This document shows positions 16,816 to 61,767 of a stretch of 64,000 bases of DNA, one piece after another. Source of the DNA: Thereva unica. Taxonomy: Eukaryota; Arthropoda; Insecta; Diptera; Therevidae. A model generated the notes under the pieces. It had not been told where the DNA came from. It did no database searches and saw nothing but the letters and a program-made list of their open reading frames with translations. Both the position numbers and the translations under genes were made by a program. Within the stretch, counting starts at the first letter, position 1, and every line of letters begins with the position of its first letter. The stretch is taken from assembly GCA_949987705.1 (NCBI GenBank), contig OX465281.1:159416393-159480392 (forward strand), given 5' to 3'.

Positions 16816-16968
16816 TATTCCCGGGCCTTGGGTCCTGTGGATCCAAAACTAAGTCTGGAAGTAATGAAGCTTTAAGTTTTGCTACAAAATAAAAACAAAA
16901 AATGACATGGGAATTTAAGGACAACTAGGACAGGAATTATGCTAGGATGGAAAATGGTTTATGGTACG

Positions 16969-19900
16969 TTATTTTAACTTGGTGGTGTTTGTGCTGTCCA
17001 CTTGTTCCATATCTGTATTGTCTTCGCACGGTAGTAGGCACACCTTGGAAATTGGTCGCTTCAAGATCCTATCCTTAACTTTCAGTGTAACCACTCTAAC
17101 AAGTTGATCCGTCCCTGGATGCGTTTCGGTTATCCTTCCAAGCATCCACTTCGTAGGAGGTAGCCTTTCTTCCTTAATTAGTACTAGTTGTCCTACCTCG
17201 AGATTTTTCCTTGTTTGTAGCCATTTAGGCCGTTGCTGGAGACGAGATAAATATTCTGAATGCCAGCGTTTCCAAAACGATTGGACTAAATGCGTTAAGT
17301 GATGCCATCGTGTAAGTGCAGTGGGTTTCTCATCTAGGATTGATGGCTCTGGTAATGCCAACGGTGCTTCACCTAACAGAAAGTGGCCTGGTGTAAGTGC
17401 ATTCAAGTCCTCTGGATCGTCTGTTAATGGTGTGATCGGCCTAGAATTTAGACAAGCTTCTATCTGGGTCGCAATTGTGGCCATTTCCTCGTACGTTAAA
17501 ATTGCATCGTTTATTATTCGTTTTAGGTGATATTTCGTAGATTTCACCGCTGCCTCCCACAATCCTCCGAAATTGGGCGCTGATGGTGGTATGAAGTGCC
17601 ATTCTATTCTCAATGCTGTGGCCTTTGGTGGCATTTCCACATTCAATTGTTTCAGATGTTGTTCGAAATCATGATTTAATAGTTTGTTTGTCCCGACAAA
17701 ATTGGTTCCGTTGTCTGAGTATATGTGCAGGCAAAGCCCTCTGCGACTAATAAACCTCTTTAAGGCTGCGTAGAATGCTTCGGACGTCAAATCAGAGACA
17801 ACTTCTATGTGGACTGCCTTGACAGCGAGGCAAACAAATATGGCTAGGTAACCTTTGAATGTTTTTTGTCCTCTGCCTCTTGATACCTTCAAATTAAACG
17901 GACCACAGAAATCCACGCCAACGTGAGTGAAAGGTCGCGACATTCGTGTTCTGGGAGACGGCAGATTTCCCATCAATTGGGATTCAGGTTTCGCCTTATG
18001 TCGGAAGCATTTCATGCATCGGTGCACCAACCCTTTTATGCAGCTCCTCAACTTGAGAATCCAGAATCGATTCCTTAACCAGGTCATCATCAATTGGGGG
18101 CCGCCGTGAAGAGTTCGTTCATGCGATTCTAATATTATGAGTTTGGTTAATGGATGATCGGAACTCAATATGATGGGGTGTTTTTTGAACCACGACAAAT
18201 CTGCGTGATGTAGTCGTCCTCCGACACGCAAGACTCCTTCGTCGTCGAGAAATGGCGTCAAACTGCTTAACCTGCCATTCTTTACCTCTTTTCCTGACCT
18301 GCAGGTCAACAATTCATCTGCGAATTCATCCGCTTGTGCGTCTTTTATCCAATGTGTGAGTGCCGAATTCAGTTCTGCCGTAGTCAACCAAATCGATGAC
18401 TCCTTTTTTAATGCCTTGCAGTTGTTGATAAATCTGAAGCAATAAGCTGACACTCGCAACAATCGTGTTAAGCTTGAATACTTTGCCACTAGTTTGGTTT
18501 CTCCTGCTTTGAGGGTTACTGCCAAATAAATTTTCACGCTCGCTCTTTCTTCCAAATTGGTTTTGTCGACTTGAATCGGGGTCGGCCAATGTTCTTTAGA
18601 TTTTTTAAGCCAGTTTGGACCATGCCACCACAGTGTGTGCGAGATGAGTTCCGTTGGTGCTATGCCACGTGATGCACAGTCCGCAGGATTTTCCTTTGAA
18701 GACACGTACTTCCAAGAGGAGCAGTCGATAGTTTCTTGGATTTCGGCCACTCTATTTGCCACAAAAGTCTTCCATCTTGAAGGATGTGCCTTTATCCAAG
18801 CTAGTGTTATGGTGGAATCGCACCAAAGTGTTAAACGAATGTTACTGCTTTTCAAGGCCATTTTTATTGCTTTAAATAGACGCACTAACAAAACGGCTCC
18901 ACATAATTCAAGTCGTGCCAATGTTACCGGTTTGATGGGAGCGACCTTGGTTTTTGATGTTAGCAAATGAGTATGAATGTGACCAAATTTATCGACCGAC
19001 CGGACATAAAACACTGCTGCGTATGCCCGATTTGAGGCGTCACAAAATCCGTGCAATTCAATTTCATCGGTAAAGGTGTGCAGCCATCTGGGGATTTTGA
19101 TATCTTCAATGTGTTTCAGATCCTTCCGAAAGTCGTTCCAAGCTTGTGTAAAATCCTCAGATAATCTGTCATCCCAATCCAAGCCGCTTAACCAAACACT
19201 CTGCATGATAATCTTGGCTCGTATCATGATGGGTGAGAGAAGCCCCAGAGGGTCGAATAATTTGGATATTTGCGACAAAAGGTCTCGTTTCGTGATCAAT
19301 TCAGAATTAGCAAGATAGGTGTTCATTTTGTACATAAAGGTGTCTGTCTTGGGGCACCAAAGAACGCCTAATGTTTTAATTCCATCTTCGAAGTCGAAAT
19401 TGCGGATCTTACTAAGCTCTTGGTCCGCCAGTGGAATTGCCTTGATTAATTCTGGATCGTTGGTGGTCCATTTTCGCAAATTGAAACCGCCTAACTGCAT
19501 CAAACGTATCAATTGTTCTTGAAGTTGTGTTGCTTCTTCAACCGTACTTGCTCCTGTCAGAAGGTCGTCGACGTAGAAATCCGACTTAACTATCTCCGAT
19601 GCTCTTGGGAAGTTTTGATATTCATCATCAGCCAGCTGATGCAGTGTTCTTATAGCCAAATATGGAGCACAAGACGTGCCAAAGGTGACTGTGTGTAAGC
19701 AGAAGTCTTGTATCTTTTCGGCTGGCGATGGTCTCCACAACACTCGTTGAAAATCGACGTCCTCTTCCGACACCTTGATTTGGCGATACATCTTCTCCAA
19801 ATCTGCAGTGAAAACGATCTTGTGTTTTCGCCACCGTAAAAGAATTTGCCATAAATCATCTTGTAGTTTGGGACCGACCATCAAGACGTCGTTAAGTGAT

Positions 19901-22239: not shown

Positions 22240-22562
22240 GCTTGCGTACACTTTATATAAAGGCACAAATAAAAAATGGAGTACTCACCGAAATAATCAA
22301 TTCGTAGTGATCCTCTCCGGTGATTCCTTGTTGTTTCACGTGGTCGAGATGGGCTGGGAAATATCCTTGCACTATCGCAATAACTTTGTCCACTAATTAA
22401 TTAGCACTAATTTAAGCTTTATTCACTAATTGTCCACGTTTTAAAAGTTATCAATATATAACCCGCTACCGTTCTTTGTCCACCACTTTGCAAATTAACC
22501 GGCACTTTGTCTTCCAAAACTTTCTTATTTCTCCGCACGAATATCTCACAAATTAAAACAAA

Positions 22563-22580
22563 ATCCGGCTCGAAGGACCA
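22563..22580 (-). promoter_or_regulatory. BEL-1 primer-binding site, tRNA-Tyr type
   Basis: The minus strand reads TGGTCCTTCGAGCCGGAT, seven bases inside the 5' LTR. It is complementary to the 3' end of metazoan tRNA-Tyr (...CCGGCTCGAAGGA plus CCA), as recalled from general knowledge. Confidence 0.8.
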
Positions 22581-22587
22581 AAAAATA

Positions 22588-23446
22588 TGTTCATCAAATT
22601 CAAATGGATGCTTTCAAATTCACAAAAGGTTCAAGAAATATTCGTGCAACTCAAATTAATTTCGCGTAAATTGCAGTATTAAAAAACTCACGTACACCAA
22701 AAACGTTAATTTTATTAAAAATGAAAATATAACTTTATCAGTACATTTATTCGGATTCAAACTAAATTCTAATTAGATTAATTGCGGTATTCGCTACAAT
22801 TTCGTCGCGATCAAATTCAAAAAGCACAAATTCAAAAATCAAAATTCAAATTCAAGAGAGCCAAGAAAAATCTGTTGCTAACTTATATAGCAAAAGCCTA
22901 CGTGACTACAGCACTTTGACCGCAATTTTCACAAATCAGTTATTACCGCTGCATCGGTTTTCTTGTTTACTCCACCCACATCTTTCCCCTTTTCATATTA
23001 ATTTCAATTCAATTCAATTAATTTCGAGTTCGAATTGTTTACATTTGAAATGTCAAATTGTGATGTGGGTGCAGCAAACAAATATTATTTGTTTAGTGAT
23101 TTTTTGTGATTGTTTACAAAGGTGAGTGACTTAAATCTAATTATTTGTTAAAATATATAATATATATATAAAATTTGTTCTTATATGTTTATTGTTTTTC
23201 GAAACTAATTTTTAATACTAATTCATATTATTTCTTGAATGAACCTAACCTAAAATCTTATATGTTAAAATTTTATACACTATTTAATAACTAAATTTGT
23301 TTTCTGTATTTTAGCTGCTGTTGGTGCCCATTGTTTGGTTTGAGAAGGACGTGTCGTCAGGAAACCTCGCAGGGAAGTATTTTGTATTTATGAGTTCACT
23401 GATGGCGATTGTGTTTTTTATGAACTTTTTAGGTGGATGTCCAACA
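22588..23446 (-). repeat. BEL-1 5' LTR
   Basis: Same length as the other LTR and nearly identical. It is 5' with respect to the minus-strand frame. The 348 bp between it and the ATG hold the primer-binding site and leader. Confidence 0.9.
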
Positions 23447-26339: not shown

Positions 26340-27075
26340 AACAGTATGCTCAAAATATTATTTGGTCCATGGCGACCATCTCAAGAGGGCGGATTAACAT
26401 TTTTTCCACAACCCCCTCGACATGGGTTTCAAATGAAAGAGTATCATAAGTAGAATACCATAAGCAATATATTGCTTGATCCATGGCGGCCATCCTCAAA
26501 AGAGCGGATTAACATTTTCTTCACAACCCCCTCGACATGGGTATTAAATGAAAGGGCATCATAAGTCGAATGCAATAATCTATGTCTTTAAATTCATGGC
26601 GGCCTCCTCAAGAGGGTGGATTATAATTCTCTTCAGAATCCTTTCGATATGAGTATCAAATGAAAGTGTATGAGAAGTAGAAGACCATTAGTTATATAGT
26701 ATACTCAATATATCGTTTGGTCCATGGCGGCCATCTCAAGAGGGCGGATTAACATTTTCTTCACAACCAATCGACATGGGTTATAAATGTAAGGGTATGA
26801 TAAGTAGAATACCATTAGCAATATAGTATACTCAATATTTCGTTTAGTGCATGGTGGCCATCTCAAGAGGGGGGATTAATATTTCTTCACAACACCCGCG
26901 ACGTGGGTACTACAGGAAAGGGTGTGATAAGTAGAATACAATAAGCTATATGGTGTCATTGTAAATTGAACTTGGTGGCTAACATAAACTGGTGGATTGC
27001 CTAACTTTACAATAACCTCGAAATGGAAATCAAATGAAAGGACATGCCATGTAGAATAAAATAAGCTATGTGACG
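26340..27075 (-). repeat. Satellite array, minus orientation, about six units
   Basis: Units of roughly 110-135 bp recur, each with GGCGGCCATCTCAAGAGG, GCGGATTAACATTTTCTTCA, CGACATGGGTATCAAATGAAAG-like and AAGTAGAATACCATAAG blocks. They are the reverse complement of the array at 31990-34450. The last unit toward 27075 is degraded. Confidence 0.85.
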
Positions 27076-30989: not shown

Positions 30990-32001
30990 TTGTAACATAG
31001 AAATTATTGGCTTATGATAACTATAATAAGATGCATATACTTCAGAATCAATTTTGTACAAGAATCTTGAAAAAACGGCATCAACTGTAGTACAGTATTT
31101 CGTTGTGTACTGTGCTGGATCATTATTCATACTCAAATTAAATGTGTCAGATAAAAAGGATGTGAAGATTTTAAATTTGTCTTTTTCATTGAAGTTAATA
31201 TTAAAGTCTCCAGATAATATTATATTAGTGGAAGTTTATGACATAGTAATTTATATTCTCTCTCAGTATATTCTAACAGGGATCGATGAATAAATAATGT
31301 AATATAGTCAATCTTTTGATTTCGTGATATATAAACAGCTACAATAACTATTTCATGATCTTTTCTTATTTTACAAATCATTGAACAAATGTCTCCAACT
31401 GATGAATGTCTAGTACTCAATGCACTCAAAATAGTTTCCATATTTGGTTGGCAAATGTTGACACTATCTTTATAGTTTTGGTATATTGCGACCCACCTGC
31501 ATGAATATTGTCTCGTTTATAATGAGAAATGCAATTGAAATTAGGAAGGATAATTTCTTCTTCATTTCTCATCCATGTTTCAGTAAGTAATAGAATATTA
31601 CAATTTTCAGTAACTGGATCAATGAAATCTAAAATATGATTTTTTAAACTTTGGCAATTAAAAGTTAATACTGAAAGACCTATTTTGGTACAAATCATAT
31701 CCAAAACCATTTGCGTTCTGGTCTGCAATGTGTTTAAAGATAATCTTTGAAATTCTTGCAGCTATTTCTCTGTTGATCTAGCTTGCTTTCGATTATGATA
31801 AAACTTAAATTTCGTTGGATCATCTTGAGGTGTTACAATATACAAATTTTCTATATTTGTTGCACGAAATAACGCAACGTATACAAGTTCTTGGGAATGA
31901 TCTTTGCTGTACTCGTAAACAATTTCACTGAAAGTTCCATTCTGCGATTTATGTATGGTCATAGCGCAAGCCGCAATTAAAGGTGGTGTTCCACTTATCA
32001 T
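30990..32001 (-). pseudogene. Helentron-type helicase C-terminus fused to endonuclease domain
   Basis: The first minus-strand frame (32001-31762) carries the last Pif1-helicase motifs: IAACAMTIHKSQNGTF (motif V) and ELVYVALFRATNIENLYIV (motif VI, with Phe where Ser is usual). Next, 31728-31426 opens an endonuclease/exonuclease/phosphatase domain (LSVLTFNCQSLKNH; ILLLTETWM). This continues in other frames to SGDFNINF (about 31200) and the terminal SYHKPI (about 31020). A helicase with a C-terminal apurinic-like endonuclease is the hallmark of Helentrons. Stops or shifts occur near 31760, 31435 and 31220. Everything upstream (Rep domain, most of the helicase) is replaced by the satellite array. 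Confidence 0.8.
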
Positions 32002-34450
32002 ACCCTTTCATTTGATACCCATGTCGAGGGAACTGTGAAGAAAATGGTAATCCGCCCTCTTGAGATGGCCGCCATGAATATAAAGACATAGCCTACTGCA
32101 TTCTACTTATAATGCCCTTTCATTTGATACCCATGTCGAGGGAGTGGTGAAGAAAATGGTAATCCGCCCTCTTGAGATGACCGCCATGTACCAAACGATA
32201 TATTGAAAATACTATATTGCTTATGGTGTTCTACTTATCATACTCTTTCATTTGATACCCATCTCGAAGGGGTTGTGAAGAAAATGGTAATCCGCCCTCT
32301 TGAGATGGCCGCCATGGACCAAATGATGAATTGAGTATGCTATATTGCTTATGGTGTTTCATTTATCATACTCTTTCATTTGATACCCATATTGAGGGAA
32401 CTGTGAAGGAAATGGTAATCCGCCCTCTTGAGATGGCCGCCATGGACCAAACGATATATTGAGTACACTATATTCCTTATGGTGTCCCACTTATCATACC
32501 CTTTCATTTGATACCCATGTCTCGGGTGTTGTGAAGAAAATAGTAATACGCCCTCTTGAGATGACCGCCATGAATATAAAGACATAGCCTACTGCATTTT
32601 ACTTATAATGCCCTTTCATTTGATACCCATGTCAAGGGGGTTGTGAAGAAAATGGTAATCCGCCGTCTTAAGATGGCCGCCATGGACCAAATGATATATT
32701 GAGTATACTTTATTGCTTAAGGTATTCCACTTATCATACCCTTTCATTTGATAGCCATGTCTCGGGTGTTGTGAAGAAAATAGTAATCCGCCCTCTTGAG
32801 ATGGCCGTCATGAATATAAAGACATAGCCTACTGCATTCTACTTATAATGCCCTTTCATTTGATACCCATGTCGAGGGAGTGGTAAAGAAAATGGTAATC
32901 CGCCCTCTTGAGATGACCGCCATGGACCAAACGATATATTGAATATACTATATTGCTTATGGTGTTTTACTTATCGTACTCTTTCATTTGATACCCATCT
33001 CGAAGGGGTTGTGAAGAAAATGGTAATCCGCCCTCTTGAGATGGCCGCCATGGACCAAATGATAAATTGAGTATACTATATTGCTTATGGTGTTTCACTT
33101 ATCATACTCTTTCATTTGATACCCATGTCGAGGGAACTGTGAAGGAAATGGTAACCCGCCCTCTTGTGATGGCCGCCATGAATATAAAGACATAGCCTAT
33201 TGCATTCTACTTATAATGCCCTTTCATTTGATACCCATGTCCTGGGGTTGTGAAGAAAATGGTAATCCGCCCTCTTGAGATAACCGCCATGGACCAAACG
33301 ATATATTGAATATTCTATATTGCTTATGGTGTTCTACTTATCGTACTCTTTCATTTGATACCCATTTCGAAGGGGTTGTGATGAAGATGGTAATCCGCCC
33401 TCTTCAGATGGCCGCCATGGACCAAATGAAAAATTGAGTATACTATATTGCTTATGGTGTTCCACTTTTCATACTCTTTCATTTGATACCCATGTCGAGG
33501 GCACTGTGAAGAAAATGGTAATCCGCCCTCTTGAGATAACCGCCATGGACCAAACGATATATTGAGTATACTATATTGGTTATGGTGTTCTACTTATCAT
33601 ACTCTTTCATTTGATACCCATCTCAAAGGGGTTGTGAAGAAAATGGTAATCGGCCCTCTTAAGATGGCCACTATTGACCAAATGATAGATTGAGTATACT
33701 ATATTGCTTATGGAGTTCTACTTTTCATAGCCTTTTATTTTGATACTCATGTCTAGGTGTTGTGCAGAAAATGGTAATCCGCCCTCTTGAGATGGCCGCC
33801 ATGAATCTAAAGACATAGCCTATGGCATTCTACTTATAATGCCCTTTCATTTGATACCCATCTCAAGTTCGTTGTGAAGATAATGGTAATCCGCCCTCTT
33901 GAGATAACCGCCTTGGACCTAACTATAAATTAAGTATACTATATTGCTTATGGTGTTCTACTTATCATACTCTTTCATTTGATACCCATGTCGAGGGGGT
34001 TGTGAAGAAAATGGCAATTCACCCGCTGGAGATGTCCGCCATGGACCAAATGATATTTTGAGTATACTATATTGCTTATGGTGTTCTACTTATCATATCC
34101 TTTCATTGGATACCCATGTCGAAAGGGTTGTGAAGAATATTTCAATCCGCCCTCCTGAGACGGCCTCCATGGATCTAAAGGTATATACTATATTGCATTG
34201 TCATGGGAGCTAAAGCTGTGTGCAAAATTTCAGCATGATAGGATACCCGGAAGTATTTGTAAAATCGATTGCAAAATTTGTTCCTTGAAGAAAACAGTAC
34301 TCCGTCCTCTTGAGGCCACGGCCATGAATCTGACGGTATAATTGGTATACCATAGTGCATTGTCATCGGAGCTGAAGCTGTGTGCAAAATTTCAGGGTGA
34401 TCGGGTAACCAGAAGTATTAAAAAAATCGGTTGCAAGATTTGTACCGGAC
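31990..34450 (+). repeat. Satellite array, 18 units of about 110-135 bp
   Basis: I count 18 occurrences of the core CTTTCATTTGATACCCATGT (allowing variants) between 32000 and 34115, each followed by GGTAATCCGCCCTCTTGAGA and TGGCCGCCATG. Two unit types alternate: one continues AATATAAAGACATAGCCTAC, the other GACCAAACGATATATTGAG and TATTGCTTATGGTGTTC. The last part (34190-34450) carries two GTGTGCAAAATTTCAG blocks and ends in ACAGACAGAC. The first unit directly abuts the truncated helicase frame at about 31990-32001. Confidence 0.9.
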
Positions 34451-46197: not shown

Positions 46198-47287
46198 GGA
46201 GGTGGGTCAAAATTGCCCCAGGCCCGGCGCAAAAGAAAAGTATCTCAGATTATCGGCTATAATAAGTATAGAATTTCTGTATAGTTGTTATATCCCGTAA
46301 CTGTGGCTAAGGTGTTAATAATGCTATTTCTTTTTATTCGGGCGAAATGACTAATTAACCCTGTATTTTTGTAACGCCACCACATATCTTCATGTATAAG
46401 GTATCAGTGCACGCAGAATACTCCCACCTATCTAAAATTGTAAAAACGACGGTACCACAGTACCAACTTTCAGAGTTATGAGTCGTCAAAGTCAAAATTT
46501 TGTTGTTGTTTTTTTAACAAAAATGTCACTTTCAACCACCTTTTTCTCCAAAATATTCATAGTCAACTAATGTTTTTTTTTTCCCAGAATAAGAAAGCTT
46601 GGATTTTTTCCTATGAATAATGTCTAAACAATTTTTATGCTACGGCCTTTACTTTCGAAGTTATAAGCAATTTTAATACTAAAATTGGCGTTATTTCGTA
46701 CTTTTTTAGTACTCTTTTTCCTAAGCTTATGTCGAAAAGAACTAAGTGAAAAAATATCAAAGCCAAAATTGCTTGCGATTCCCGCAAATAAGGCCAGTTT
46801 TAGCATTTAAATTGCTTATAACTTCGACAGTAAGGCCGTAGCATAAAAATTGTCTGGACATTATTCATAGGAAAAACTCCAAGCTTTCTTATTCTGGAAA
46901 AAAAAAACATTAGTTGACTATGAATATTTTGGAGAAAAAGGTGGTTGAAAGTGACATTTTTGTTAAAAAAAACAAAATTTTGACTTTGACGACTCATAAC
47001 TCTGAAAGTTGGTACTGTGGTACCGTCGTTTTTACAATTTTAGATAGGTGGGAGTATTCTGCGTGCACTGATACCTTATACATGAAGATATGTGGTGGCG
47101 TTACAAAAATACAGGGTTAATTAGTCATTTCGCCCGAATAAAAAGAAATAGTATTATTAACACCTTAGTCACAGTTACGGGATATAACAACTATACAGAA
47201 ATTCAATACTTATTCAGCCGATAATCTGAGATACTTTTCTTTTGCGCCGGGCCTGGGGTAATTTTGTATGGGCTGTGACCCACCTCC
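46198..47287. mobile_element. Fold-back element, arms about 483 bp
   Basis: The left arm 46198-46680 and right arm 46805-47287 are reverse complements with few differences, starting GGAGGTGGGTC. The 124-bp loop contains CGTACTTTTTTAGTACTC and GTCGAAAAGAACTAAG. Arms and loop are related to the element at 54493-59655 (shared GAATACTCCCACCTATCTAA and TTTCCTATGAATAATGTCTA). There is no open frame of interest. Confidence 0.9.
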
Positions 47288-47845: not shown

Positions 47846-49307
47846 TGTTCCGGCGACACTAAAATAAAATCGCACCTGAAAAAAGCCAGCAAACTCCTGA
47901 AAGGAAAACTAAAAAAAACCGAAAGGGAATTAAAAAATAAAACACCAATTTCATTATTATTTTCCATTTTATTAAAACAACGAAGCAAAACTACATCGAT
48001 GCACAATTACAAAAAACTCACAAGTTAAAGGACAGCACTACACAACAACAAAAAAAAAACAACAAGAAATTCATACCTGGAAATAGAAAATAGTTAGTAA
48101 AGTACAAATATTAAACCTACAAATACTTACCTTTTTTAAAAAAGTTGAAAATTAAAATCCAAGGCGATGAAAGATTCATTCAAGAAAACCCATCCAGAAA
48201 GATGCCAAAAAGCCGTCGGCAAATCGACATCAGCAAAATCTGTAAACGAAAAATTAGTAAAAAATACAAACAAATTCCACTAAAACTCTTACCTGTCAAC
48301 CCTAATATGGATAATCCCAAAACTCCGCCTCATCATCCCCTCTAAATCGGTGCTAAAACCTAAAAATATAACTAAAATTAATAAATAAATGAAAATAAAC
48401 AAAGATAAAAATACTCACCTAGTTGCAACTCCATTTGACATCTGGAGGAAAAACAAGAACAGCTGATCGGACATTGCACGCAGATCTAGTACATAAACCC
48501 GAAATTATGTACTTCGAGAACGAAGCCCCCTACTACAGAATAGCCTCAACCATTATTCGAGGAGAAATAAATACCGACGCACAGACGGCGTTAAATCAGA
48601 TTGCTTTTAATCTTTCTAGAGTCTTGAACAAGAAGATAAAATCTGTATTGAGGTTTTAGCAATAAAGCAATTTCAAAGCCTAAGTATCGAACTTAGCATT
48701 CTGAAAAGACAGAATTGAGGTCTTTCCCAGTAAAGCCCGAATTAAAGACAGTTTTGAAGTCTTTAATACAGCAGTAACTTAATCACCAAAATTGATTTCA
48801 GCAGTTACTCTAACCAACCACAGAGGGACGAATTTGCGAAGAAACAAGGCAAAGCAGTCCAGCAAACACAACCAAGGCAGCAAGCAGCAACCAGGCAGCG
48901 AGCAGCAAGCAAATCCCAAGCGATTCACAAGAAACGAAACCAGAGTGCAGCAACACAAAGGTTATTCCTGGCTGTTCTAATTGCAGAACACATCAGTCGA
49001 AACATCAATCATCACGCTGACAGATAGGTGGCGTTATTCATTTAAGTTACCAGAGCAAGCAATATTTTGGTAATTTTTATTTACAAAACAAATACGAAAT
49101 TTCAAGTAATAAATAACGAATTAAAGATTGAATTGAATTATTTTGGCAATTTGTTGAATTTTTATTGAAGTTATATTTGAGAAAATCTAAGAATTAATTG
49201 CGAATAAATAGTAATTTTGATTTTGTGGAAAAGGTTATCTTTTTATTGAATCACACCCTTCCGGCACCTTTTTTATGAGTCAGAAATTAAATTGCTAATT
49301 CTGAACA
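47846..49307 (+). repeat. BEL-2 5' LTR
   Basis: It begins TGTTCCGGCGACAC and ends ATTCTGAACA, and is unusually long for a BEL element. It contains two plus-strand frames of 66 and 78 codons, present in both LTRs (48145-48345; 48423-48659), and a set of antisense splice consensus sites (48077-48441). The 3' copy differs by substitutions and small indels. Confidence 0.9.
48077..48441 (-). other. Antisense exon-intron-like structure in the LTR
   Basis: Reading the minus strand, acceptor CCTCCAG precedes ATG at 48441. Donor CTAG|GTGAGT (48418) is followed by acceptor TTTTTAG (48360), 59 nt. Donor ACAG|GTAAGA (48292) is followed by acceptor TTTACAG (48240), 53 nt. Donor AAAG|GTAAGT (48130) is followed by acceptor TTTCCAG (48077), 54 nt. 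The implied internal exons are 67 and 109 nt. The intron sizes are those of short insect introns. Joining the exons does not give one long frame from the ATG, so a coding role is not supported. The 3' LTR copy has lost the third donor (GT to TT). Confidence 0.5.
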
Positions 49308-49326: not shown

Positions 49327-49365
49327 CGTGATTCAATAAGATAACTCAAGCCGCAATTCAGAAAC

Positions 49366-52300
49366 ATGGAAGAATTACTCGATCATCAAAAACGACTTCG
49401 AGAACGCATCGAGAAGGCATATCGCAACTTTTCCAAGGATGGACCAAGTAGAAAAACGGAAACATACTTCCAAAAGAAACTCGACGGTCTGGATGACGAC
49501 TGGAAAAAGTTCCGCGATAACGAGGAGAAAATAATGAGCAAAACGCTAAGTGAAGCCGAACACAAGCATCCATACTTCAAGGACGATTGGTACGCAGAAG
49601 TGGAGGAAACTTACATAAACACCTATTCCGCAATCAACGAAGAATACTTCAAGATCCGTCCAGCCGCAGACCCAAGAGCCGAGCAATCATCAACAGATCT
49701 AAATAATAGTCAAATTGCTCACCATAACAACGAGGTAAAACTTCCACGAATCTCAATACCCACATTCGCAGGCGACTATGCATCATGGCCATCGTTCTTG
49801 GACTTATTCACCAGCCTCATACACAACAAAGCATCATTATCAGGTGCTCAAAAACTCCAATATCTAAAGGCTCATTTATCTGGGGAAGCATTGAGACTAC
49901 TCAGCAATACATAAATAAGCGATGCCAACTATGAACCTGCATGGAATCTACTCGTTGATACTTACGACAATAAGCGAGCATTATTAAAGACACAGCTCGA
50001 CATTCTACTCAGCCAACCGAAGTTAAGTCGAGAGTCAGCACAAGGCATCAAGGAGCTGAAGACAAGGACCCACGAATGTCTCACCGCCATTGAGAATCTG
50101 AAAATCTCAACACAGAATTGGGACCCTATTCTCATCCATTTGCTTGTACAGAAACTACCGACCGAAACTCACGAGCAGTGGGAGCAATCCCAGAGTACTA
50201 AGTCAAGGCAAACCATTCCGACATGGCCAAAACTGCGTACTTTCCTCGAAACAAGATTCAGGACGTTAGAAGCTGTCAACAACCCATCAAACAGCAAGCG
50301 TGAACATCACGAGAGCAAAGCCAGGGAGCACCCAAGAAGAAGAACCCAAGCCTTCCATGTAGCAAATCAAAGCGTATGCATCCTGTGCAAAGGCGCACAT
50401 GCCATAGGGAAATGCCCCAAATATGTGCAGTTCAGCATCGATGATAGATTTAAAACAGTCAAATCAAAGGATCTATGCATCAATTGCCTGAGAGCAGGCC
50501 ATCGCTCATCACAGTGTCCCAGTAAAGGTAGGTGTTTCCAATGCGGAAAGACTCACCATACAACCTTACACAGAATCCAGTCAGCGAGTCAAACCAACAG
50601 CAGCGTTTCACCGCCTTCAAGTTCAAACGATGAATTACCATCCAACCAAACACAAACATACTTCGCTCAGGCAGCACCTTACGACTGCCGACAAGTACTC
50701 TTAGCCACAGCCCTGGTCACCGTAGTATCTCCAACTGGACGAGAGCAGGTCTGCAGAGCACTCATTGATCCCGGATCTCAATCCTCATTCGTACGTGAGG
50801 CAGTGGTTCAAGATCTACAACTCAAAAAGGAGCCAATACAAACCGCATTAAGCGTGATCGGTAACATGCCAGCGGGGAAAATCACAAAATGGGCCTCGCT
50901 GCAACTAAAACCACGAAACCAACAGGCGAAGAACATCCAGGTCCAGGCAATGGTAATTAACAAAATAACTAATCCATTACCAAATAGTGAATGTTCTAGC
51001 AAGGATTGGGCGCACTTAAAGGGTCTCGAATTAGCGGATCCAACGTTCCACAAGCCGGGTCACATCGACATCCTTTTGGGAGCAGATGTATTCCCCATGA
51101 TCATCTTGGCCGGCCTAAGGAAAGGCAACGAGGAAGCCCCAGTGGGACAAAACACGGTGTTTGGGTGGATCATCTCTGGGAAGACGACTCCAGCTGCACG
51201 AGCAAGCGCACATGTGAAAACATTCTTCACCGAGGTGACTCCTAACGACGAGCTAAAGAGATTTTGGGAACTAGAAGAACTTCCCCCAAGATCTAAGTGG
51301 ACAAATGAAGAAACTCGCTGTGAAACACATTTCAACAACAACGTCACTAGATGCAGCAACGGACGTTACCAAGTCCGGCTTCCATTTGTAGCTGATAAAG
51401 TACAACTTGGCGCATCAAGACACATCGCCATTCGAACATTGATGCAGATGGAGAAACGATTCCAACAAGATCCTGACCTGAAAGCAGACTAAGTCAAATG
51501 CATACAGGAATATTTGACGTTAGGTCACATGATGCCTGCCACCACCCTCGAATCAGCACTTCAAAATCAATTGCCCAACGACACAACAACATATCGATGT
51601 TGTTACCTGCCTCACCATGCTGTCATCAAACCGAGCAGCACGACCACCAAACTGAGAGTAGTTTTCGACGCATCCCGTCCGACTGCCAACGGAAACTCAC
51701 TCAATAGCGTATTATTGAATGGACCAGTGATACAAGACTCTTTGATGTCTACTCTCATGCGATGGAGAAAATATCGAATTGCTTACATGGCCGACATCGA
51801 GAAGATGTACCGGCAGATACGAGTTCATCCAGACGATGCCGATTACCAGCGGATTGTTTGGAGGGACTCACCAGATCAGCCTATACGAGACTACAAACTC
51901 TTGACTGTGACGTTCGGAACAAAGAGCGCTCCTTTCCTTGCCATCCGAACCATGCACCAATTGGCGAAAGATGAAGCAGAAATGTTCCAAATCGGATCCA
52001 ACGCTGTACTCAACGATTTTTACGTTGACGATTTGATGACTGGCGCAGATAACATAGAAGAAGCAAGACAGAAACAAAGGCAATTAATTCAGCTTCTCCG
52101 AGCTGGAGGGCTAGAGCTCCGAAAATGGGCCGCGAATCACAACACCATCTTGGAAGAAGTTCCGGCAACCGATCGAGAGGTCTCATTTCCACTCGCAGTG
52201 AATGCAGAAGAAGTCAAAGCTCTTGGCTTATTATGGAATCCTGCCAGCGATACACTGTCGTACAAGGTCAGCATGGAGTCAGCACCAGAAATATATACAA

Positions 52301-54459
52301 AACGGAAAATATTGTCCGAAATTGCGAAGCTGTTCGACCCCATCGGCTGGCTTACACCAGTAACAATTAATGCCAAAATTTTAATACAAAGTCTTTGGCT
52401 GACAAAACTCGACTGGGATGAAATAGTCCCGATCAACATCGATCAACAATGGCGAAAGTTCCGAGCAGACCTCCAAGTCATCCAAACTATTCAAATCCCG
52501 CGATGGATTGAAGCTCACAACAAAATCCAGAACATCGAAATCCATGGATTTTGCGACGCATCCATCAAAGCATATGCAGCAGCCGTATATATCCGGACAC
52601 AAGACGAAGACGGTAACTGCCATTGTCACTTAATCGCTGCCAAGAGCAAAGTGGCACCCATCAAGACCATCTCACTGCCAAAGCTAGAGTTATGCGGAGC
52701 GCACTTATTGGCCAAACTACTGGCGCAAGTAAAGGACGACATGAAGTTCGAGCAGGTAACTACACATGCTTGGACTGATTCTACAATTGTCATCGCATGG
52801 CTAAGAAAGCACCCATCATCATGGGAAACATTTGTGGCGAACAGGGTCTCACAAATACATCAGCTGCTAGACCAAAGTAGCTGGAATCATGTTAGAACAG
52901 AAGACAACCCTGCCGACTGCGCCACAAGAGGACTATCACCGAGTGAATTGAAACCACATAAGTTATGGTGGACAGGCCCTCATTGGCTCCAACAGACACA
53001 GGAGCATTGGCCCAAAAGGAAGGAAATTCAAGATACCACGGTGGGAGTACGAAAGACCACCACCAATCTGCATATCGAAGTAGATCCCTCCAATCACGAT
53101 CTGATCAACAAATATTCGTCATTAACGAAACTGCTAAGAGTCACAGCATATTGTCGACGGTGGTTAAAAACATCAAAATCATCATCCAGCCTTCCTCAGC
53201 CTAGCTACCTAACTTCAAGAGAAATCCAAGCAGCCCTACAGTGCTGGATAAAAAACGTCCAATCACAGGAATTTGAAGAAGAAATACGAGCAATACAGTC
53301 AAAACAACCAGTGTCCAGCAAAAGTAAACTCAGAAGATTGACACCGTTCCTCGATCAAGAGGGTATTTTAAGAATAGGAGGGCGCATCCAGAATGCCGAT
53401 ACAACATTCTCCGAGAGCCATCCCATTATCTTGCCAGAAACTAGCCCCCTATCCAAGCTCATCATCGACAATATACATCGCACGACATTACACGGAGGTA
53501 CGCAGCTAATGTTACACACGCTAAGACAGAGATATTGGATACTGAACGCACGAAACGCAGTAAGACGGCATAATCATCGATGCATGCAGTGTTTTAGGCA
53601 AAGAGCAGCAGGACAAACACAACTAATGGCCAATCTTCCGACATATCGGGTCCGTCCTGCAAGGCCCTTCGCTCACACTGGAGTGGACTATTGTGGTCCT
53701 TTCGAATTAAAATTATCCAAATTACGAAACGCTCGAAGCCAAAAGGGCTACATAGCACTATTCATCTGCATGGTGACAAAGGCCATCCACTTAGAAGTTG
53801 TCACCGACGCCTCCACAGAAGGATTTCTCACGGCATTCCGGAGATTCATCGCAAGACGTGGGCTATGTTCCGACATGTATAGCGATTGTGGATCCAACTT
53901 TCTCGGAGCAAACAATATGCTCACACGCTTTAAGATTGAAGCCAACAAGGCAAGGCAACAATTGGAGACGCAAAATTGACTTACGAAGAGCTTAGTACCC
54001 TCACAGCGCAGATTGAAGCTACGCTCAACTCGAGACCACTCACTGAATTAACCCAAGACCCAGACGACATATCGGCGCTAACCCCAGGACACTTCTTGAT
54101 AGGTGGTCCACTACTGACACCACCAGAACCTAGCCTACTCGACGCAAACATCAATCGGCTAGACAGATATCAATTCATTCAACGGTTACACCAAGGATTC
54201 TGGACACGCTGGAGCAAGGAGTACCTAAATAGACTCCAACAACGGCCAAAGTGGCAAAAACCCACGCCTGAAGTCGCAATCAATGATCTAGTTCTCATCA
54301 AGGATGAGACTGCCGCCATCTCGATGGCTACTAGGAAGGATCATAAATACTCTCCCTGGACATGACAATCTCATCCGGGTAGTGACTGTAAAAACAAGGA
54401 ATAATATCATCAAAAGACCCATCACAAAAATATGTTTATTACCAGCAACGAAATAAAAG
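49366..54459 (+). pseudogene. pol: BEL-2 Gag-Pol, two stops, deletion and frameshift
   Basis: The domains in order are Gag (ISIPTFAGDYASWPSFLDLF), zinc knuckles (CILCKGAHAIGKC ... CINCLRAGHRSSQC), protease (ALIDPGSQSSFVRE), RT (RVVFDASRPTANG; YVDD at about 52025), RNase H (IHGFCDASIKAYAA), and integrase Cys pair (HRCMQCFRQR), D (GVDYCGPF) and D (YSDCGSNF). TAA codons at 49912-49914 and 51490-51492 replace sense codons found in the nested copy at 55091. Near 53975 a deletion removes the integrase part with the catalytic Glu. Coding resumes in another frame (LTYEELSTLTAQIEATLN) and shifts again near 54318 before the end at about 54459. It is defective. Confidence 0.9.
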
Positions 54460-54492
54460 ATAGTTAAGACCAAAACCTCAAATTTATTATAC

Positions 54493-57400
54493 AGGGTGTT
54501 CCGTTACTCATGGTACAAAGGAAAATGGCAAATAGTACAGAAAAAATTATCGCAAAAAAAAGTAAAAATTGGGGGGGTACCTCTTTTAGTTTTCGAGATA
54601 TGGCGTTTTGAAGTTTTTTTGGTAGAGGTTTACATATTACCCTGTATTTTTGTCACCTTTTTAGATATTTTAATGAATAAGACATCAATCTACGCAGAAT
54701 ACTCCCACCTATCTAAATCTGTAAAAGTCAAGGGGTCAACCCACCAACATCCAGAGTTATGAGTCATCAAAGACAAAATTTTGTTTTTTTTCACTAAAAT
54801 TTCCACTTCAACCACCTTTTTCTCCAAAAAATACGTAATAAACCAATATTTTGTTTTACAAAATTGGAAAGCTTGGACAATTTCCTATGAATAATGTCTA
54901 ACAACTATTATGCTACGACCTTTACTTTTGAAGTTATTAGCAATTTTGATAGAGAAATTGGCTCTATTTCGTCCATTTTTAGTACTTTTTCACCTGAGTT
55001 TTGTCGAAAAGTACCAAATAAGCACCAAATAAGGCCAACTAGAAGGCCTAGATTTAGAAGCTCAAACTCAAACTCAAGCAATTCAGAAACATGGAAGAAT
55101 TACTCGATCATCAAAAACGACTTCGAGAACGCATCGAGAAGGCATATCGCAACTTTTCCAAGGATGGACCAAGTAGAAAAACGGAAACATACTTCCAAAA
55201 GAAACTCGACGGTCTGGATGACGACTGGAAAAAGTTCCGCGATAACGAGGAGAAAATAATGAGCAAAACGCTAAGTGAAGCCGAACACAAGCATCCATAC
55301 TTCAAGGACGATTGGTACGCAGAAGTGGAGGAAACTTACATAAACACCTATTCCGCAATCAACGAAGAATACTTCAAGATCCGTACAGCCGCAGACCCAA
55401 GAGCCGAGCAATCATCAACAGATCTAAATAATAGTCAAATTGCTCACCATAACAACGAGGTAAAACTTCCACGAATCTCAATACCCACATTCGCAGGCGA
55501 CTATGCATCATGGCCATCGTTCTTGGACTTATTCACCAGCCTCATACACAACAAAGCATCATTATCAGGTGCTCAAAAACTCCAATATCTAAAGGCTCAT
55601 TTATCTGGGGAAGCATTGAGACTACTCAGCAATACATTAGTAAGCGATGCCAACTATGAACCTGCATGGAATCTACTCGTTGATACTTACGACAATAAGC
55701 GAGCATTATTAAAGACACAGCTCGACATTCTACTCAGCCAACCGAAGTTAAGTCGAGAGTCAGCACAAGGCATCAAGGAGCTGAAGACAAGGACCCACGA
55801 ATGTCTCACCGCCATTGAGAATCTGAAAATCTCAACACAGAATTGGGACCCTATTCTCATCCATTTGCTTGTACAGAAACTACCGACCGAAACTCACGAG
55901 CAGTGGGAGCAATCCCAGAGTACTAAGTCAAGGCAAACCATTCCGACATGGCCACAACTGCGTACTTTCCTCGAAACAAGATTCAGGACGTTAGAAGCTG
56001 TCAACAACCCATCAAACAGCAAGCGTGAACATCACGAGAGCAAAGCCAGGGAGCACCCAAGAAGAAGAACCCAAGCCTTCCATGTAGCAAATCAAAGCGT
56101 ATGCATCCTGTGCAAAGGCGCACATGCCATAGGGAAATGCCCCAAATATGTGCAGTTCAGCATCGATGATAGATTTAAAACAGTCAAATCAAAGGATCTA
56201 TGCATCAATTGCCTGAGAGCAGGCCATCGCTCATCACAGTGTCCCAGTAAAGGTAGGTGTTTCCAATGCGGAAAGACTCACCATACAACCTTACACAGAA
56301 TCCAGTCAGCGAGTCAAACCAACAGCAGCGTTTCACCGCCTTCAAGTTCAAACGATGAATTACCATCCAACCAAACACAAACATACTTCGCTCAGGCAGC
56401 ACCTTACGACTGCCGACAAGTACTCTTAGCCACAGCCCTGGTCACCGTAGTATCTCCAACTGGACGAGAGCAGGTCTGCAGAGCACTCATTGATCCCGGA
56501 TCTCAATCCTCATTCGTACGTGAGGCAGTGGTTCAAGATCTACAACTCAAAAAGGAGCCAATACAAACCGCATTAAGCGTGATCGGTAACATGCCAGCGG
56601 GGAAAATCACAAAATGGGCCTCGCTGCAACTAAAACCACGAAACCAACAGGCGAAGAACATCCAGGTCCAGGCAATGGTAATTAACAAAATAACTAATCC
56701 ATTACCAAATAGTGAATGTTCTAGCAAGGATTGGGCGCACTTAAAGGGTCTCGAATTAGCGGATCCAACGTTCCACAAGCCGGGTCACATCGACATCCTT
56801 TTGGGAGCAGATGTATTCCCCATGATCATCTTGGCCGGCCTAAGGAAAGGCAACGAGGAAGCCCCAGTGGGACAAAACACGGTGTTTGGGTGGATCATCT
56901 CTGGGAAGACGACTCCAGCTGCACGAGCAAGCGCACATGTGAAAACATTCTTCACCGAGGTGACTCCTAACGACGAGCTAAAGAGATTTCGGGAACTAGA
57001 AGAACTTCCCCCAAGATCTAAGTGGACAAATGAAGAAACTCGCTGTGAAACACATTTCAACAACAACGTCACTAGATGCAGCAACGGACGTTACCAAGTC
57101 CGGCTTCCATTTGTAGCTGATAAAGTACAACTTGGCGCATCAAGACACATCGCCATTCGAACATTGATGCAGATGGAGAAACGATTCCAACAAGATCCTG
57201 ACCTGAAAGCAGACTACGTCAAATGCATACAGGAATATTTGACGTTAGGTCACATGATGCCTGCCACCACCCCCGAATCAGCACTTCAAAATCAATTGCA
57301 CAACGACACAACAACATATCGATGTTGTTACCTGCCTCACCATGCTGTCATCAAACCGAGCAGCGCGACCACCAAACTGAGAGTATTTTTCGACGCATCC

Positions 57401-59655
57401 CGTCCGACTGCCAACGGAAACTCACTCAATAGCGTATTATTGAATGGACCAGTGATACAAGACTCTTTGATGTCTACTCTCATGCGATGGAGAAAATATC
57501 GAATTGCTTACATGGCCGACATCGAGAAGATGTACCGGCAGATACGAGTTCATCCAGACGATGCCGATTACCAGCGGATTGTTTGGAGGGACTCACCAGA
57601 TCAGCCTATACGAGACTACAAACTCTTGACTGTGACGTTCGGAACAAAGAGCGCTCCTTTCCTTGCCATCCGAACCATGCACCAATTGGCGAAAGATGAA
57701 GCAGAAATGTTCCAAATCGGATCCAACGCTGTACTCAACGATTTTTACGTTGACGATTTGATGACTGGCGCAGATAACATAGAAGAAGCAAGACAGAAAC
57801 AAAGGCAATTAATTCAGCTTCTCCGAGCTGGAGGGCTAGAGCTCCGAAAATGGGCCGCGAATCACAACACCATCTTGGAAGAAGTTCCGGCAACCGATCG
57901 AGAGGTCTCATTTCCACTCGCAGTGAATGCAGAAGAAGTCAAAGCTCTTGGCTTATTATGGAATCCTGCCAGCGATACACTGTCGTACAAGGTCAGCATG
58001 GAGTCAGCACCAGAAATATATACAAAACGGAAAATATTGTCCGAAATTGCGAAGCTGTTCGACCCCATCGGCTGGCTTACACCAGTAACAATTAATGCCA
58101 AAATTTTAATACAAAGTCTTTGGCTGACAAAACTCGACTGGGATGAAATAGTCCCGATCAACATCGATCAACAATGGCGAAAGTTCCGAGCAGACCTCCA
58201 AGTCATCCAAACTATTCAAATCCCGCGATGGATTGAAGCTCACAACAAAATCCAGAACATCGAAATCCATGGATTTTGCGACGCATCCATCAAAGCATAT
58301 GCAGCAGCCGTATATATCCGGACACAAGACGAAGACGGTAACTGCCATTGTCACTTAATCGCTGCCAAGAGCAAAGTGGCACCCATCAAGACCATCTCAC
58401 TGCCAAAGCTAGAGTTATGCGGAGCGCACTTATTGGCCAAACTACTGGCGCAAGTAAAGGACGACATGAAGTTCGAGCAGGTAACTACACATGCTTGGAC
58501 TGATTCTACAATTGTCATCGCATGGCTAAGAAAGCACCCATCATCATGGGAAACATTTGTGGCGAACAGGGTCTCACAAATACATCAGCTGCTAGACCAA
58601 AGTAGCTGGAATCATGTTAGAACAGAAGACAACCCTGCCGACTGCGCCACAAGAGGACTATCACCGAGTGAATTGAAACCACATAATTTATGGTGGACAG
58701 GCCCTCATTGGCTCCAACAGACACAGGAGCATTGGCCCAAAAGGAAGGAAATCCAAGATACCACGGTGGGAGTACGAAAGACCACCACCAATCTGCATAT
58801 CGAAGTAGATCCCTCCAATCACGATCTGATCAACAAATATTCGTCATTAACGAAACTGCTAAGAGTCACAGCATATTGTCGACGGTGGTTAAAAACATCA
58901 AAATCATCATCCAGCCTTCCTCAGCCTAGCTACCTAACTTCAAGAGAAATCCAAGCAGCCCTACAGTGCTGGATAAAAAACGTCCAATCACAGGAATTTG
59001 AAGAAGAAATACGAGCAATACAGTCAAAACAACCAGTGTCCAGCAAAAGTAAACTCAGAAGATTGACACCGTTCCTCGATCAAGAGGGTATTTTAAGAAT
59101 AGTGAAATTGGCTCTATTTCGTCCCTTTTTAGTACTTTTTCACCTGAGTTTTGTCGAAAAGTACCAAATAAGCACCAAATAAGGCCAACTTTTGCTTTAA
59201 AATTGCTAATAACTTCAAAAGTAAAGGTCGTAGTATAATAGTTGTTAGACATTATTCATAGGAAATTGTCCAAGCTTTCCAATTTTGTAAAACAAAATAT
59301 TGGTTTATTACGTATTTTTTGGAGAAAAAGGTGGTTGAAGTGGAAATTTTAGTGAAAAAAAAACAAAATTTTGTTTTTGATGACTCATAACTCTGGATGT
59401 TGGTGGGTTGACCCCTTGACTTTTACAGATTTAGATAGGTGGGAGTATTCTGCGTAGATTGATGTCTTATTCATTAAAATATCTAAAAAGGTGACAAAAA
59501 TACAGGGTAATATGTAAACCTCTACCAAAAAAACTTCAAAACGCCATATCTCGAAAACTAAAAGAGGTACCCCCCCAATTTTTACTTTTTTTTGCGATAA
59601 TTTTTTATGTACTATTTGCCATTTTCCTTTGTACCATGAGTAACGGAACACCCTG
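54493..59655. mobile_element. Fold-back element carrying a BEL gag-pol fragment
   Basis: The ends CAGGGTGTTCCGTTACTC (54493-54510) and its inverse (59638-59655) start arms of about 455 bp (54493-54948; 59198-59655). The outer dinucleotides are TA on both sides (TATA if four bases are counted). The 87-bp loop sequence is present twice in direct orientation (54954-55040 and 59104-59190, one mismatch seen). Between the two loop copies lie a short stretch (55041-55077) and the BEL fragment 55078-59103. Without that DNA the element would be about 1.05 kb, similar to its relative at 46198-47287. Confidence 0.9.
55091..59182 (+). CDS. pol: Captured BEL gag-pol (open, integrase lost)
   Basis: A 1363-codon frame is nearly identical to BEL-2 Gag-Pol but lacks its two stops. 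It has Gag, zinc knuckles, protease (ALIDPGSQSSFV), RT (YVDD at about 57750) and RNase H (IHGFCDAS), and stops matching BEL after FLDQEGILRI at 59101. The last 26 or so codons are read from the fold-back loop. The integrase is absent. The fragment starts 13 bases before the BEL ATG, so it carries no LTR or primer site. Differences from BEL-2 are few (for example RVFFDAS here against RVVFDAS), implying a recent common source. Confidence 0.9.
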   Translation: MEELLDHQKRLRERIEKAYRNFSKDGPSRKTETYFQKKLDGLDDDWKKFRDNEEKIMSKTLSEAEHKHPYFKDDWYAEVEETYINTYSAINEEYFKIRTAADPRAEQSSTDLNNSQIAHHNNEVKLPRISIPTFAGDYASWPSFLDLFTSLIHNKASLSGAQKLQYLKAHLSGEALRLLSNTLVSDANYEPAWNLLVDTYDNKRALLKTQLDILLSQPKLSRESAQGIKELKTRTHECLTAIENLKISTQNWDPILIHLLVQKLPTETHEQWEQSQSTKSRQTIPTWPQLRTFLETRFRTLEAVNNPSNSKREHHESKAREHPRRRTQAFHVANQSVCILCKGAHAIGKCPKYVQFSIDDRFKTVKSKDLCINCLRAGHRSSQCPSKGRCFQCGKTHHTTLHRIQSASQTNSSVSPPSSSNDELPSNQTQTYFAQAAPYDCRQVLLATALVTVVSPTGREQVCRALIDPGSQSSFVREAVVQDLQLKKEPIQTALSVIGNMPAGKITKWASLQLKPRNQQAKNIQVQAMVINKITNPLPNSECSSKDWAHLKGLELADPTFHKPGHIDILLGADVFPMIILAGLRKGNEEAPVGQNTVFGWIISGKTTPAARASAHVKTFFTEVTPNDELKRFRELEELPPRSKWTNEETRCETHFNNNVTRCSNGRYQVRLPFVADKVQLGASRHIAIRTLMQMEKRFQQDPDLKADYVKCIQEYLTLGHMMPATTPESALQNQLHNDTTTYRCCYLPHHAVIKPSSATTKLRVFFDASRPTANGNSLNSVLLNGPVIQDSLMSTLMRWRKYRIAYMADIEKMYRQIRVHPDDADYQRIVWRDSPDQPIRDYKLLTVTFGTKSAPFLAIRTMHQLAKDEAEMFQIGSNAVLNDFYVDDLMTGADNIEEARQKQRQLIQLLRAGGLELRKWAANHNTILEEVPATDREVSFPLAVNAEEVKALGLLWNPASDTLSYKVSMESAPEIYTKRKILSEIAKLFDPIGWLTPVTINAKILIQSLWLTKLDWDEIVPINIDQQWRKFRADLQVIQTIQIPRWIEAHNKIQNIEIHGFCDASIKAYAAAVYIRTQDEDGNCHCHLIAAKSKVAPIKTISLPKLELCGAHLLAKLLAQVKDDMKFEQVTTHAWTDSTIVIAWLRKHPSSWETFVANRVSQIHQLLDQSSWNHVRTEDNPADCATRGLSPSELKPHNLWWTGPHWLQQTQEHWPKRKEIQDTTVGVRKTTTNLHIEVDPSNHDLINKYSSLTKLLRVTAYCRRWLKTSKSSSSLPQPSYLTSREIQAALQCWIKNVQSQEFEEEIRAIQSKQPVSSKSKLRRLTPFLDQEGILRIVKLALFRPFLVLFHLSFVEKYQISTK

Positions 59656-59734
59656 TATATCAAACACGTCTACCAACAATTAAGCAAAGAATCGTGCAGA
59701 TGTCCGTTAGCTACCCAACCGTTAAACCCAATCA

Positions 59735-60305: not shown

Positions 60306-61767
60306 TGTTCCGGCGACACTAAAATAAAATCGCACCTGAAAAAAGCCAGCAAACTCCTGAAAGGAAAACTAAAAAAACCGAAAGGGAATTAAAAAATAAA
60401 ACACCAATTTCATTATTATTTTCCATTTTATTAAAACAACGAAGCAAAACTACATCGATGCACAATTACAAAAAACTCACAAGTTAAAGGACAGCACTAC
60501 ACAACAACAAAAAAAAAACAACCAGAAATTCATACCTGGAAATAGAAAATAGTTAGTAAAGTACAAATATTAAACCTACAAATACTTAACTTTTTTAAAA
60601 AAGTTGAAAATTAAAATCCAAGGCGATGAAAGATTCATTCAAGAAAACCCATCCAGAAAGATGCCAAAAAGCCGTCGGCAAATCGACATCAGCAAAATCT
60701 GTAAACGAAAAATTAGTAAAAAATACAAACAAATTCCACTAAAACTCTTACCTGTCAACCCTAATATGGATAATCCCAAAACTCCGCCTCATCATCCCCT
60801 CTAAATCGGTGCTAAAACCTAAAAATATAACTAAAATTAATAAATAAATGAAAATAAACAAAGATAAAAATACTCACCTAGTTGCAACTCCATTTGACAT
60901 CTGGAGGAAAAACAAGAACAGCTGATCGGACATTGCACGCAGATCTAGTACATAAACCCGAAATTATGTACTTCGAGAACGAAGCCCCCTACTACAGAAT
61001 AGCCTCAACCATTATTCGAGGAGAAATAAATACCGACGCACAGACGGCGTTAAATCAGATTGCTTTTAATCTTTCTAGAGTCTTGAACTAGAAGATAAAA
61101 TCTGTATTGAGGTTTTAGCAATAAAGCAATTTCAAAGCCTAAGTATCGAACTTAGCATTCTGAAAAGACAGAATTGAGGTCTTTTCCCAGTAAAGCCCGA
61201 ATTAAAGACAGTTTTGAAGTCTTTAATACAGCAGTAACTTAATCACCAAAATTGATTTCAGCAGTTACTCTAACCAACCACAGAGGGACGAATTTGCGAA
61301 GAAATAAGGCAAAGCAGTCCAGCAAACACAACCAAGGCAGCAAGCAGCAACCAGGCAGCGAGCAGCAAGCAAATCCCAAGCGATTCACAAGAAACGAAAC
61401 CAGAGTGCAGCAACACAAAGGTTATTCCTGGCTGTTCTAATTTCAGAACACATCAGTCGAAACATCAATCATCACGCTGACAGATAGGTGGCGTTATTCA
61501 TTTAAGTTACCAGAGCAAGCAATATTTTGGTAATTTTTATTTACAAAACAAATACGAAATTTCAAGTAATAAATAACGAATTAAAGATTGAATTGAATTA
61601 TTTTGGCAATTTGTTGAATTTTTATTGAAGTTATATTTGAGAAAATCTAAGAATTAATTGCGAATAAATAGTAATTTTGATTTTGTGGAAAAGGTTATCT
61701 TTTTATTGAATCACACCCTTCCGGCACCTTTTTTATGAGTCAGAAATTAAATTGCTAATTCTGAACA
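60306..61767 (+). repeat. BEL-2 3' LTR
   Basis: It has the same length as the 5' LTR. Seen differences include a TAG that shortens the second LTR frame (at 61089-61091) and the change CTTACC to CTTAAC near 60590, which destroys one of the antisense splice donors. Confidence 0.9.

What the first reader, a model, noticed from the sequence alone, without database searches (positions are those of the whole stretch)
54493..59655. Fold-back transposon that carries a retrotransposon gag-pol between two copies of its own loop
The arms (about 455 bp) are intact at both ends. The 87-bp loop occurs twice in direct orientation, and a 4.0 kb piece of BEL coding sequence lies between the copies. The piece begins 13 bases before the BEL ATG and ends mid-pol, so it is neither a normal retrotransposon insertion nor a normal target duplication. 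A repair or template-switch event inside a hairpin that duplicated the loop while filling in donor sequence would explain it. The whole unit still has both ends and TA flanks, so it could move as a cargo-carrying transposon.
Basis: partly seen in the sequence, partly recalled or inferred. Interest (0 to 1): 0.82.

Follow-up and report, generated by a model that had tools for sequence, protein, structure and literature searches.

The report
Hairpin transposon patched with neighbouring retrotransposon
A hairpin-shaped DNA transposon sitting inside a retrotransposon has a 4 kb piece of that same retrotransposon copied into its middle, most likely by DNA repair that switched templates; it looks like an unusual local repair scar, not a new kind of mobile element.

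Summary
The unit lies in the 3' noncoding part of a BEL copy (LTRs 47846-49307 and 60306-61767), and the captured piece matches that same copy (49342-53377, same strand, ending 1.1 kb upstream of the fold-back) better than any other scored copy. It is a local duplication, not foreign cargo. One junction has 4 bp of microhomology, the other a 30-bp filler. Both junctions and the fold-back/BEL border matched only the window over full length (capped lists), so nothing shows that the unit has moved. Best reading (0.6): a break at the hairpin loop, or excision, was repaired from both ends, each regaining arm plus loop, with a template switch into upstream BEL. This works like the gap filling published for animal Pack-TIRs, with loop duplication as the twist. 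Rivals: reverse-transcription/cDNA route; assembly artefact.

The parts
47846..49307 (+). 5' LTR of the host BEL copy (1462 bp)
   Evidence: 99.5% to 60306-61767; 5 substitutions and 2 one-base indels
49342..53377 (+). Donor stretch in the host BEL: end of leader, gag, protease, part of pol; two stop codons in frame (49912, 51490)
   Evidence: nearest relative of the piece among scored copies
54490..54491 (.). TA on the left of the fold-back
54492..54946 (+). Left arm of the fold-back, about 455 bp
54949..55040 (+). Loop, first copy (92-bp repeat unit)
   Evidence: compared with ordinary copies
55041..55070 (+). 30-bp filler at junction 1; its first 21 bases occur once in the genome with up to 2 mismatches
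55071..59102 (+). Captured BEL piece, gag ATG at 55091, open frame listed as 55091-59182
59099..59102 (+). Junction 2: microhomology ATAG shared by BEL and the start of the loop unit
59099..59190 (+). Loop, second copy (92-bp repeat unit)
59200..59655 (-). Right arm of the fold-back
59656..59657 (.). TA on the right of the fold-back
60306..61767 (+). 3' LTR of the host BEL copy
   Evidence: flanks GAAGC/GAAGT, 4 of 5 bases alike

Best explanation
A fold-back element jumped into the 3' noncoding part of a BEL retrotransposon. Later a double-strand break opened the element at its hairpin loop, or the element was excised. During repair both ends regained a full arm plus the loop. One end then switched template in cis to the BEL sequence lying 1.1 kb upstream, copied about 4.0 kb, and was joined to the other end, with 4 bp of microhomology on one side and a 30-bp filler on the other. 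The loop therefore appears twice, like a long staggered-cut duplication. Shown: anatomy, insertion at TA, nearest relative of the piece, junction types, one occurrence among scored candidates. Inferred: the break and its place, the repair pathway, and the direction of copying.
For: Both arms and both loops are complete and nothing of the element is lost. The nearest relative of the piece is the host copy itself: 5 differences against 7 and 9 for the next copies over 2051 bp, 2 against 10 over 1666 bp; T at 49648 is shared by host and piece where the six other copies readable there have C. The donor lies 1.1 kb away in the same direction. One junction has 4 bp of microhomology. The junctions are single in the scored candidates. 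Tan et al. 2021 report the same pattern (nearby donors, microhomology, single copies, internal breaks) for gap filling in animal TIR transposons (PMC8277862, section 8 read).
Against: Tan et al. find small losses between the breakpoints (median 4.6% of the TE), whereas here 92 bp are gained. The filler shows no more templating from its neighbours than shuffled fillers (p 0.25). The divergence of piece and host equals that of the two LTRs (ratio 0.87, 95% interval 0.29-3.16), which also fits an origin during reverse transcription. No other fold-back with a duplicated loop was found (the two patterns by design catch only part of the possible cases). No reads were available.
Confidence: 0.6

Rival explanations
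1. Reverse-transcription or cDNA route: the fold-back was already in a parental BEL, and template switches between packaged RNAs, or capture of BEL cDNA at the loop, put the piece there at or near the time when this BEL copy was inserted.
For: Piece/host divergence equals LTR/LTR divergence within error. The piece starts about 35 bases inside the 5' LTR border, near where a primer-binding site is expected (inference). Capture of truncated retrotransposon sequence at breaks, with short microhomology, is published (PMC4516963, passages).
Against: It needs two non-homologous switches, both at loop edges. No other BEL copy with the fold-back at this place appeared among the 40 scored of 373 candidates. 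The nearest relative is the host itself.
Confidence: 0.19
2. Assembly artefact: the assembly stopped in the hairpin from both sides, each side carrying the loop, and a BEL stretch (for example the other allele of the host) was misplaced between them.
For: Hairpins of this family can trouble the assembly: L027 runs into 200 N 32 bp into its second arm. A hairpin entered from both sides would give two loops. The difference between piece and host (0.3%) could be allelic.
Against: There is no N in the window. Many fold-back copies are assembled with both arms. The 30-bp filler is not found elsewhere, and the overlap at junction 2 is only 4 bp, which overlap-based joining would not give (inference). 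Piece and host carry 6 and 5 private changes, so the piece is a separate old sequence and not a copy made in the library.
Confidence: 0.15
3. Chance nesting of two separate fold-back elements, one on each side of a BEL piece.
For: Single-arm copies exist in the genome.
Against: The outer flanks are contiguous BEL sequence in other copies and fit one TA duplication, so both outer ends come from one insertion.
Confidence: 0.03

Closest known systems
Single-copy Pack-TIRs made by gap filling in animals (Tan et al. 2021, PMC8277862; sections 4, 8 and 12 read)
   Same: A TIR transposon with an internal filler copied from nearby DNA, microhomology at one breakpoint, breakpoints inside the element, single copy.
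   Different: The filler here is retrotransposon sequence (their definition: non-TE), and the element gains a 92-bp loop duplication instead of losing sequence.
Ssk-FB4, a foldback element that captured a gene in Drosophila (same paper, passages)
   Same: A fold-back with long inverted repeats and captured sequence between the arms.
   Different: Ssk-FB4 has 9-10 bp target duplications and several transposed copies; here TA and one occurrence.
Capture of retrotransposon sequence at double-strand breaks in mouse zygotes (PMC4516963, passages); Ty1 cDNA capture in yeast as cited there
   Same: Truncated LTR-retrotransposon pieces without LTRs, short microhomology, short sequences of unknown origin at junctions.
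   Different: There the captured pieces were a few hundred bp in the cases seen and came from other copies or cDNA; here 4 kb that matches the host copy itself.
Galileo, a foldback-like element of Drosophila (PMC3573991, passages)
   Same: Very long inverted repeats; truncated copies ascribed to errors in break repair.
   Different: A P-superfamily element; no relationship in sequence was tested.

Membership tests
Pack-TIR (gap-filling type) | Filler flanked on both sides by parts of one TIR transposon | tested here: met
   Both arms and TA flanks, uninterrupted site in other BEL copies
Pack-TIR (gap-filling type) | Filler is non-TE sequence (definition in PMC8277862, section 4) | tested here: not met
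   The filler is BEL gag-pol
Pack-TIR (gap-filling type) | Donor nearby in cis | tested here: met
   Nearest relative is the host copy, ending 1.1 kb upstream
Pack-TIR (gap-filling type) | Microhomology at one or both breakpoints | tested here: met
   ATAG at junction 2; none at junction 1, which has a filler
Pack-TIR (gap-filling type) | Transposon without the filler at the same site in an outgroup | not testable with these tools
Mobile cargo-carrying transposon (multicopy Pack-TIR) | More than one copy with the same chimeric structure at different sites | tested here: not met
   Junction queries matched over full length only at the window (40 of 1135 and 40 of 1645 candidates scored, so within a capped list)
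Fold-back element | Long inverted arms separated by a short loop, many copies in the genome | tested here: met
   72 matches to the left arm, with 3332 first-look candidates; arm-loop-arm in L004, L008, L030
Tc1/mariner superfamily | TA target duplication | tested here: met
Tc1/mariner superfamily | Related transposase in an autonomous copy | not tested
   No transposase was looked for

The most novel reading that the evidence does not exclude
The hairpin loop acts as a defined break point: both strands' hairpins are opened on the 3' side of the loop, each broken end carries the whole loop as a 3' overhang, and captured DNA ends up between two loops. Single-arm copies of the same family that end at or within 30 bp of the loop would be the one-ended outcome of the same process.
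Probability: 0.2. Interest if true: 0.55.

Novelty: new variant of a known kind. Interest (0 to 1): 0.32.

Why it matters
If real, it is a well-preserved scar of template-switch repair at a natural hairpin, with donor, both junctions and the duplicated loop all readable. It shows that gap filling in a TIR transposon can duplicate part of the retrotransposon in which it landed. It makes one prediction testable: breaks at long hairpins leave loop duplications. It does not show a new kind of mobile element.

Tried and rejected
Internal tandem duplication as a habit of this BEL family: paired BEL hits 4.4-7.4 kb apart suggested it. Of the 6 stretches fetched upstream of second copies, 5 showed LTR sequence there (L036-L039, L041) and the sixth (L040) ran from pol through the 3' tail into an LTR start, so these look like copies separated by an LTR and not like this event.

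A second cargo-carrying fold-back: L020 looked like one (4.5 kb between arm pieces), but the insert has identical 159-bp terminal repeats and one long open frame, so it is an ordinary LTR element in an arm (the Copia label is my reading). Patterns for odd loop edges gave two places each: L016 already known, the window itself, one truncated copy (L093) and one chance match without loop or arm (L092). The patterns by design catch about a third of odd edges, and the first misses the window's own junction 1.

Templating of the filler by its neighbours (a polymerase-theta sign): not above chance.

Single-arm copies as proof of breaks at the loop: of the 19 loci fetched because no full partner arm was listed (L011-L029), 9 (L011-L014, L016-L019, L022) show no second outer end in the fetched stretch and break in the loop or within about 30 bp beyond it, as does L002 (my motif failed for L012 and L016, which rest). 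Against it: L015 and L029 are also one-ended but break more than 100 bp into the arm, and L027 breaks at a run of 200 N, so the assembly itself may stop there. I do not lean on this. L011 is followed by 197 bp of another repeat (98-99% to L083/L084), but the repeat on its left (L082) does not resume in the fetched stretch, so it is no clean gap-filling case.

Dropped rows: pieces shifted by indels (copy A piece 0, copy C piece 5, copy F pieces 0-2) were left out of the reading by eye, the second piece of C2:34557086 was out of register (663 differences) and was not used.

Full report
What is there. The unit 54492-59655 has two arms of about 455 bp that are inverted copies (96.8% over 504 bp), ends CAGGGTGTTCC/GGAACACCCTG, and TA on each side. 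Inside, a 92-bp stretch holding the loop occurs twice in direct orientation with two mismatches (54949-55040, 59099-59190). Ordinary copies of this family run arm-loop-arm (L004, L008, L030). Between the two loops lie a 30-bp filler (55041-55070) and about 4.03 kb of BEL sequence (55071-59102).

The same BEL family surrounds the fold-back. LTRs of 1462 bp lie at 47846-49307 and 60306-61767 (99.5%; five substitutions and two one-base indels), with flanks GAAGC/GAAGT. Between them are pieces that match DUF1759, Peptidase_A17, RVT_1, Integrase_H2C2 and DUF5641. In the stretch shared with the piece the host frame has two stops (codons at 49912 and 51490); the piece has none there. The fold-back sits between the end of pol and the 3' LTR. 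Three other BEL pieces read straight through this place (L032, L087, L088) and fit a TA duplication; L090 shows the left flank only, L087 and L088 are one tandem pair, and 6 of the 10 pieces fetched for this did not hold the site. These copies have one or two extra 11-bp units just left of the site.

Where the piece came from. The first 2051 bp of the piece were compared with 40 scored copies of 438 candidates. After itself, the best is the host copy in the window, then C2:34557086 and the pair at C4:44032926 and C4:44040303; differences are 5, 7 and 9 (the 9 was counted for C4:44032926). For a further 1666 bp (40 of 872 candidates) the host is again best, with 2 differences against 10 for C4:44031001. 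Host and piece share T at 49648, where the six other copies that could be read there have C. So the piece was copied from this BEL copy or from its own immediate parent. The donor stretch ends 1.1 kb upstream of the fold-back and has the same direction. The lists are capped, so a better donor among unscored copies is not strictly excluded.

How old it is. Of the 12 host/piece differences, 5 are private to the host, 6 to the piece and one is unresolved (six other copies, some pieces out of register). The divergence equals that of the two LTRs within error (ratio 0.87, 95% interval 0.29-3.16). So the event is not fresh; it may date from near the BEL insertion or somewhat later. This timing cannot tell repair from reverse transcription. 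Each of the two loop copies carries one private change against the other copies compared (54953, 59125); no test was run on this.

Junctions. Junction 2 has 4 bp of microhomology, ATAG. Junction 1 has a filler whose first 21 bases occur nowhere else in the genome with up to 2 mismatches; it does not share more 6-mers with its neighbours than shuffled fillers do (p 0.25). Both junctions and the fold-back/BEL border match over full length only at the window (40 scored of 1135, 1645 and 373 candidates). Nothing shows that the enlarged unit has moved.

How it most likely arose. Duplication of the loop, with no loss of either arm, means that each repair end carried arm plus loop. This follows from a staggered break at the hairpin loop, or from excision followed by copying of arm and loop from the sister on both sides. 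One end then switched to the neighbouring BEL sequence. Tan et al. 2021 (PMC8277862; sections 4, 8 and 12 read) describe such gap filling in animal TIR transposons: nearby donors, microhomology, single copies, and breaks favoured inside the element. Their definition asks for non-TE filler, so this is not a Pack-TIR in the strict sense; it works like one. They also report small losses between breakpoints, unlike the gain seen here. Capture of truncated retrotransposon sequence at breaks is published too (PMC4516963, passages).

Limits. No reads were available. Fold-back hairpins can trouble this assembly (L027 stops at 200 N, 32 bp into its second arm). The filler, the lack of N in the window and the private changes of the piece speak against a misjoin, but a misplaced second allele is not excluded. 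Papers were searched; in the listings and passages seen I found no report of a loop duplication around captured sequence in a fold-back, which does not prove that none exists.

Noticed in passing
window 46208-47266: A plain, related fold-back hairpin (arms 46208-46696 and 46786-47266, 95.7%; about 79% like the arms here) lies just upstream of the host BEL's 5' LTR.
   Followed up: partly
window 15957-22887: A second BEL-like element on the minus strand: direct repeats 15957-16256 and 22588-22887 are 100% alike (300-nt reference copies as reported, true length not measured), with a 1765-aa open frame between them.
   Followed up: partly
window 31985-34236 and 26343-26954: Tandem arrays with units of about 112 and 128 bp; the two arrays are inverted relative to each other.
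   Followed up: no
window 237-2123 (minus strand): A LINE-like open frame with endonuclease and reverse transcriptase matches.
   Followed up: no
L002, G000:C1:159493600-159494158: A single-arm fold-back about 17.6 kb beyond the right end of the unit is the closest relative of its left half (99.3% over 559 bp, one mismatch and two gaps); it lies between TA-repeat stretches.
   Followed up: partly
L011-L014, L016-L019, L022: Fold-back copies with only one arm that break in the loop or within about 30 bp of it; real breakage or assembly trouble is undecided.
   Followed up: partly
L011:1555-1751: Directly after the loop of this single-arm fold-back comes a 197-bp piece of another repeat, 98-99% like L083 and L084.
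   Followed up: partly
L036-L041 and paired places: This BEL family often occurs as same-strand copies 4.4-7.4 kb apart, separated by LTR sequence in the stretches read.
   Followed up: partly
L020:3875-8416: An ordinary LTR element (159-bp identical terminal repeats) inserted in a fold-back arm.
   Followed up: yes
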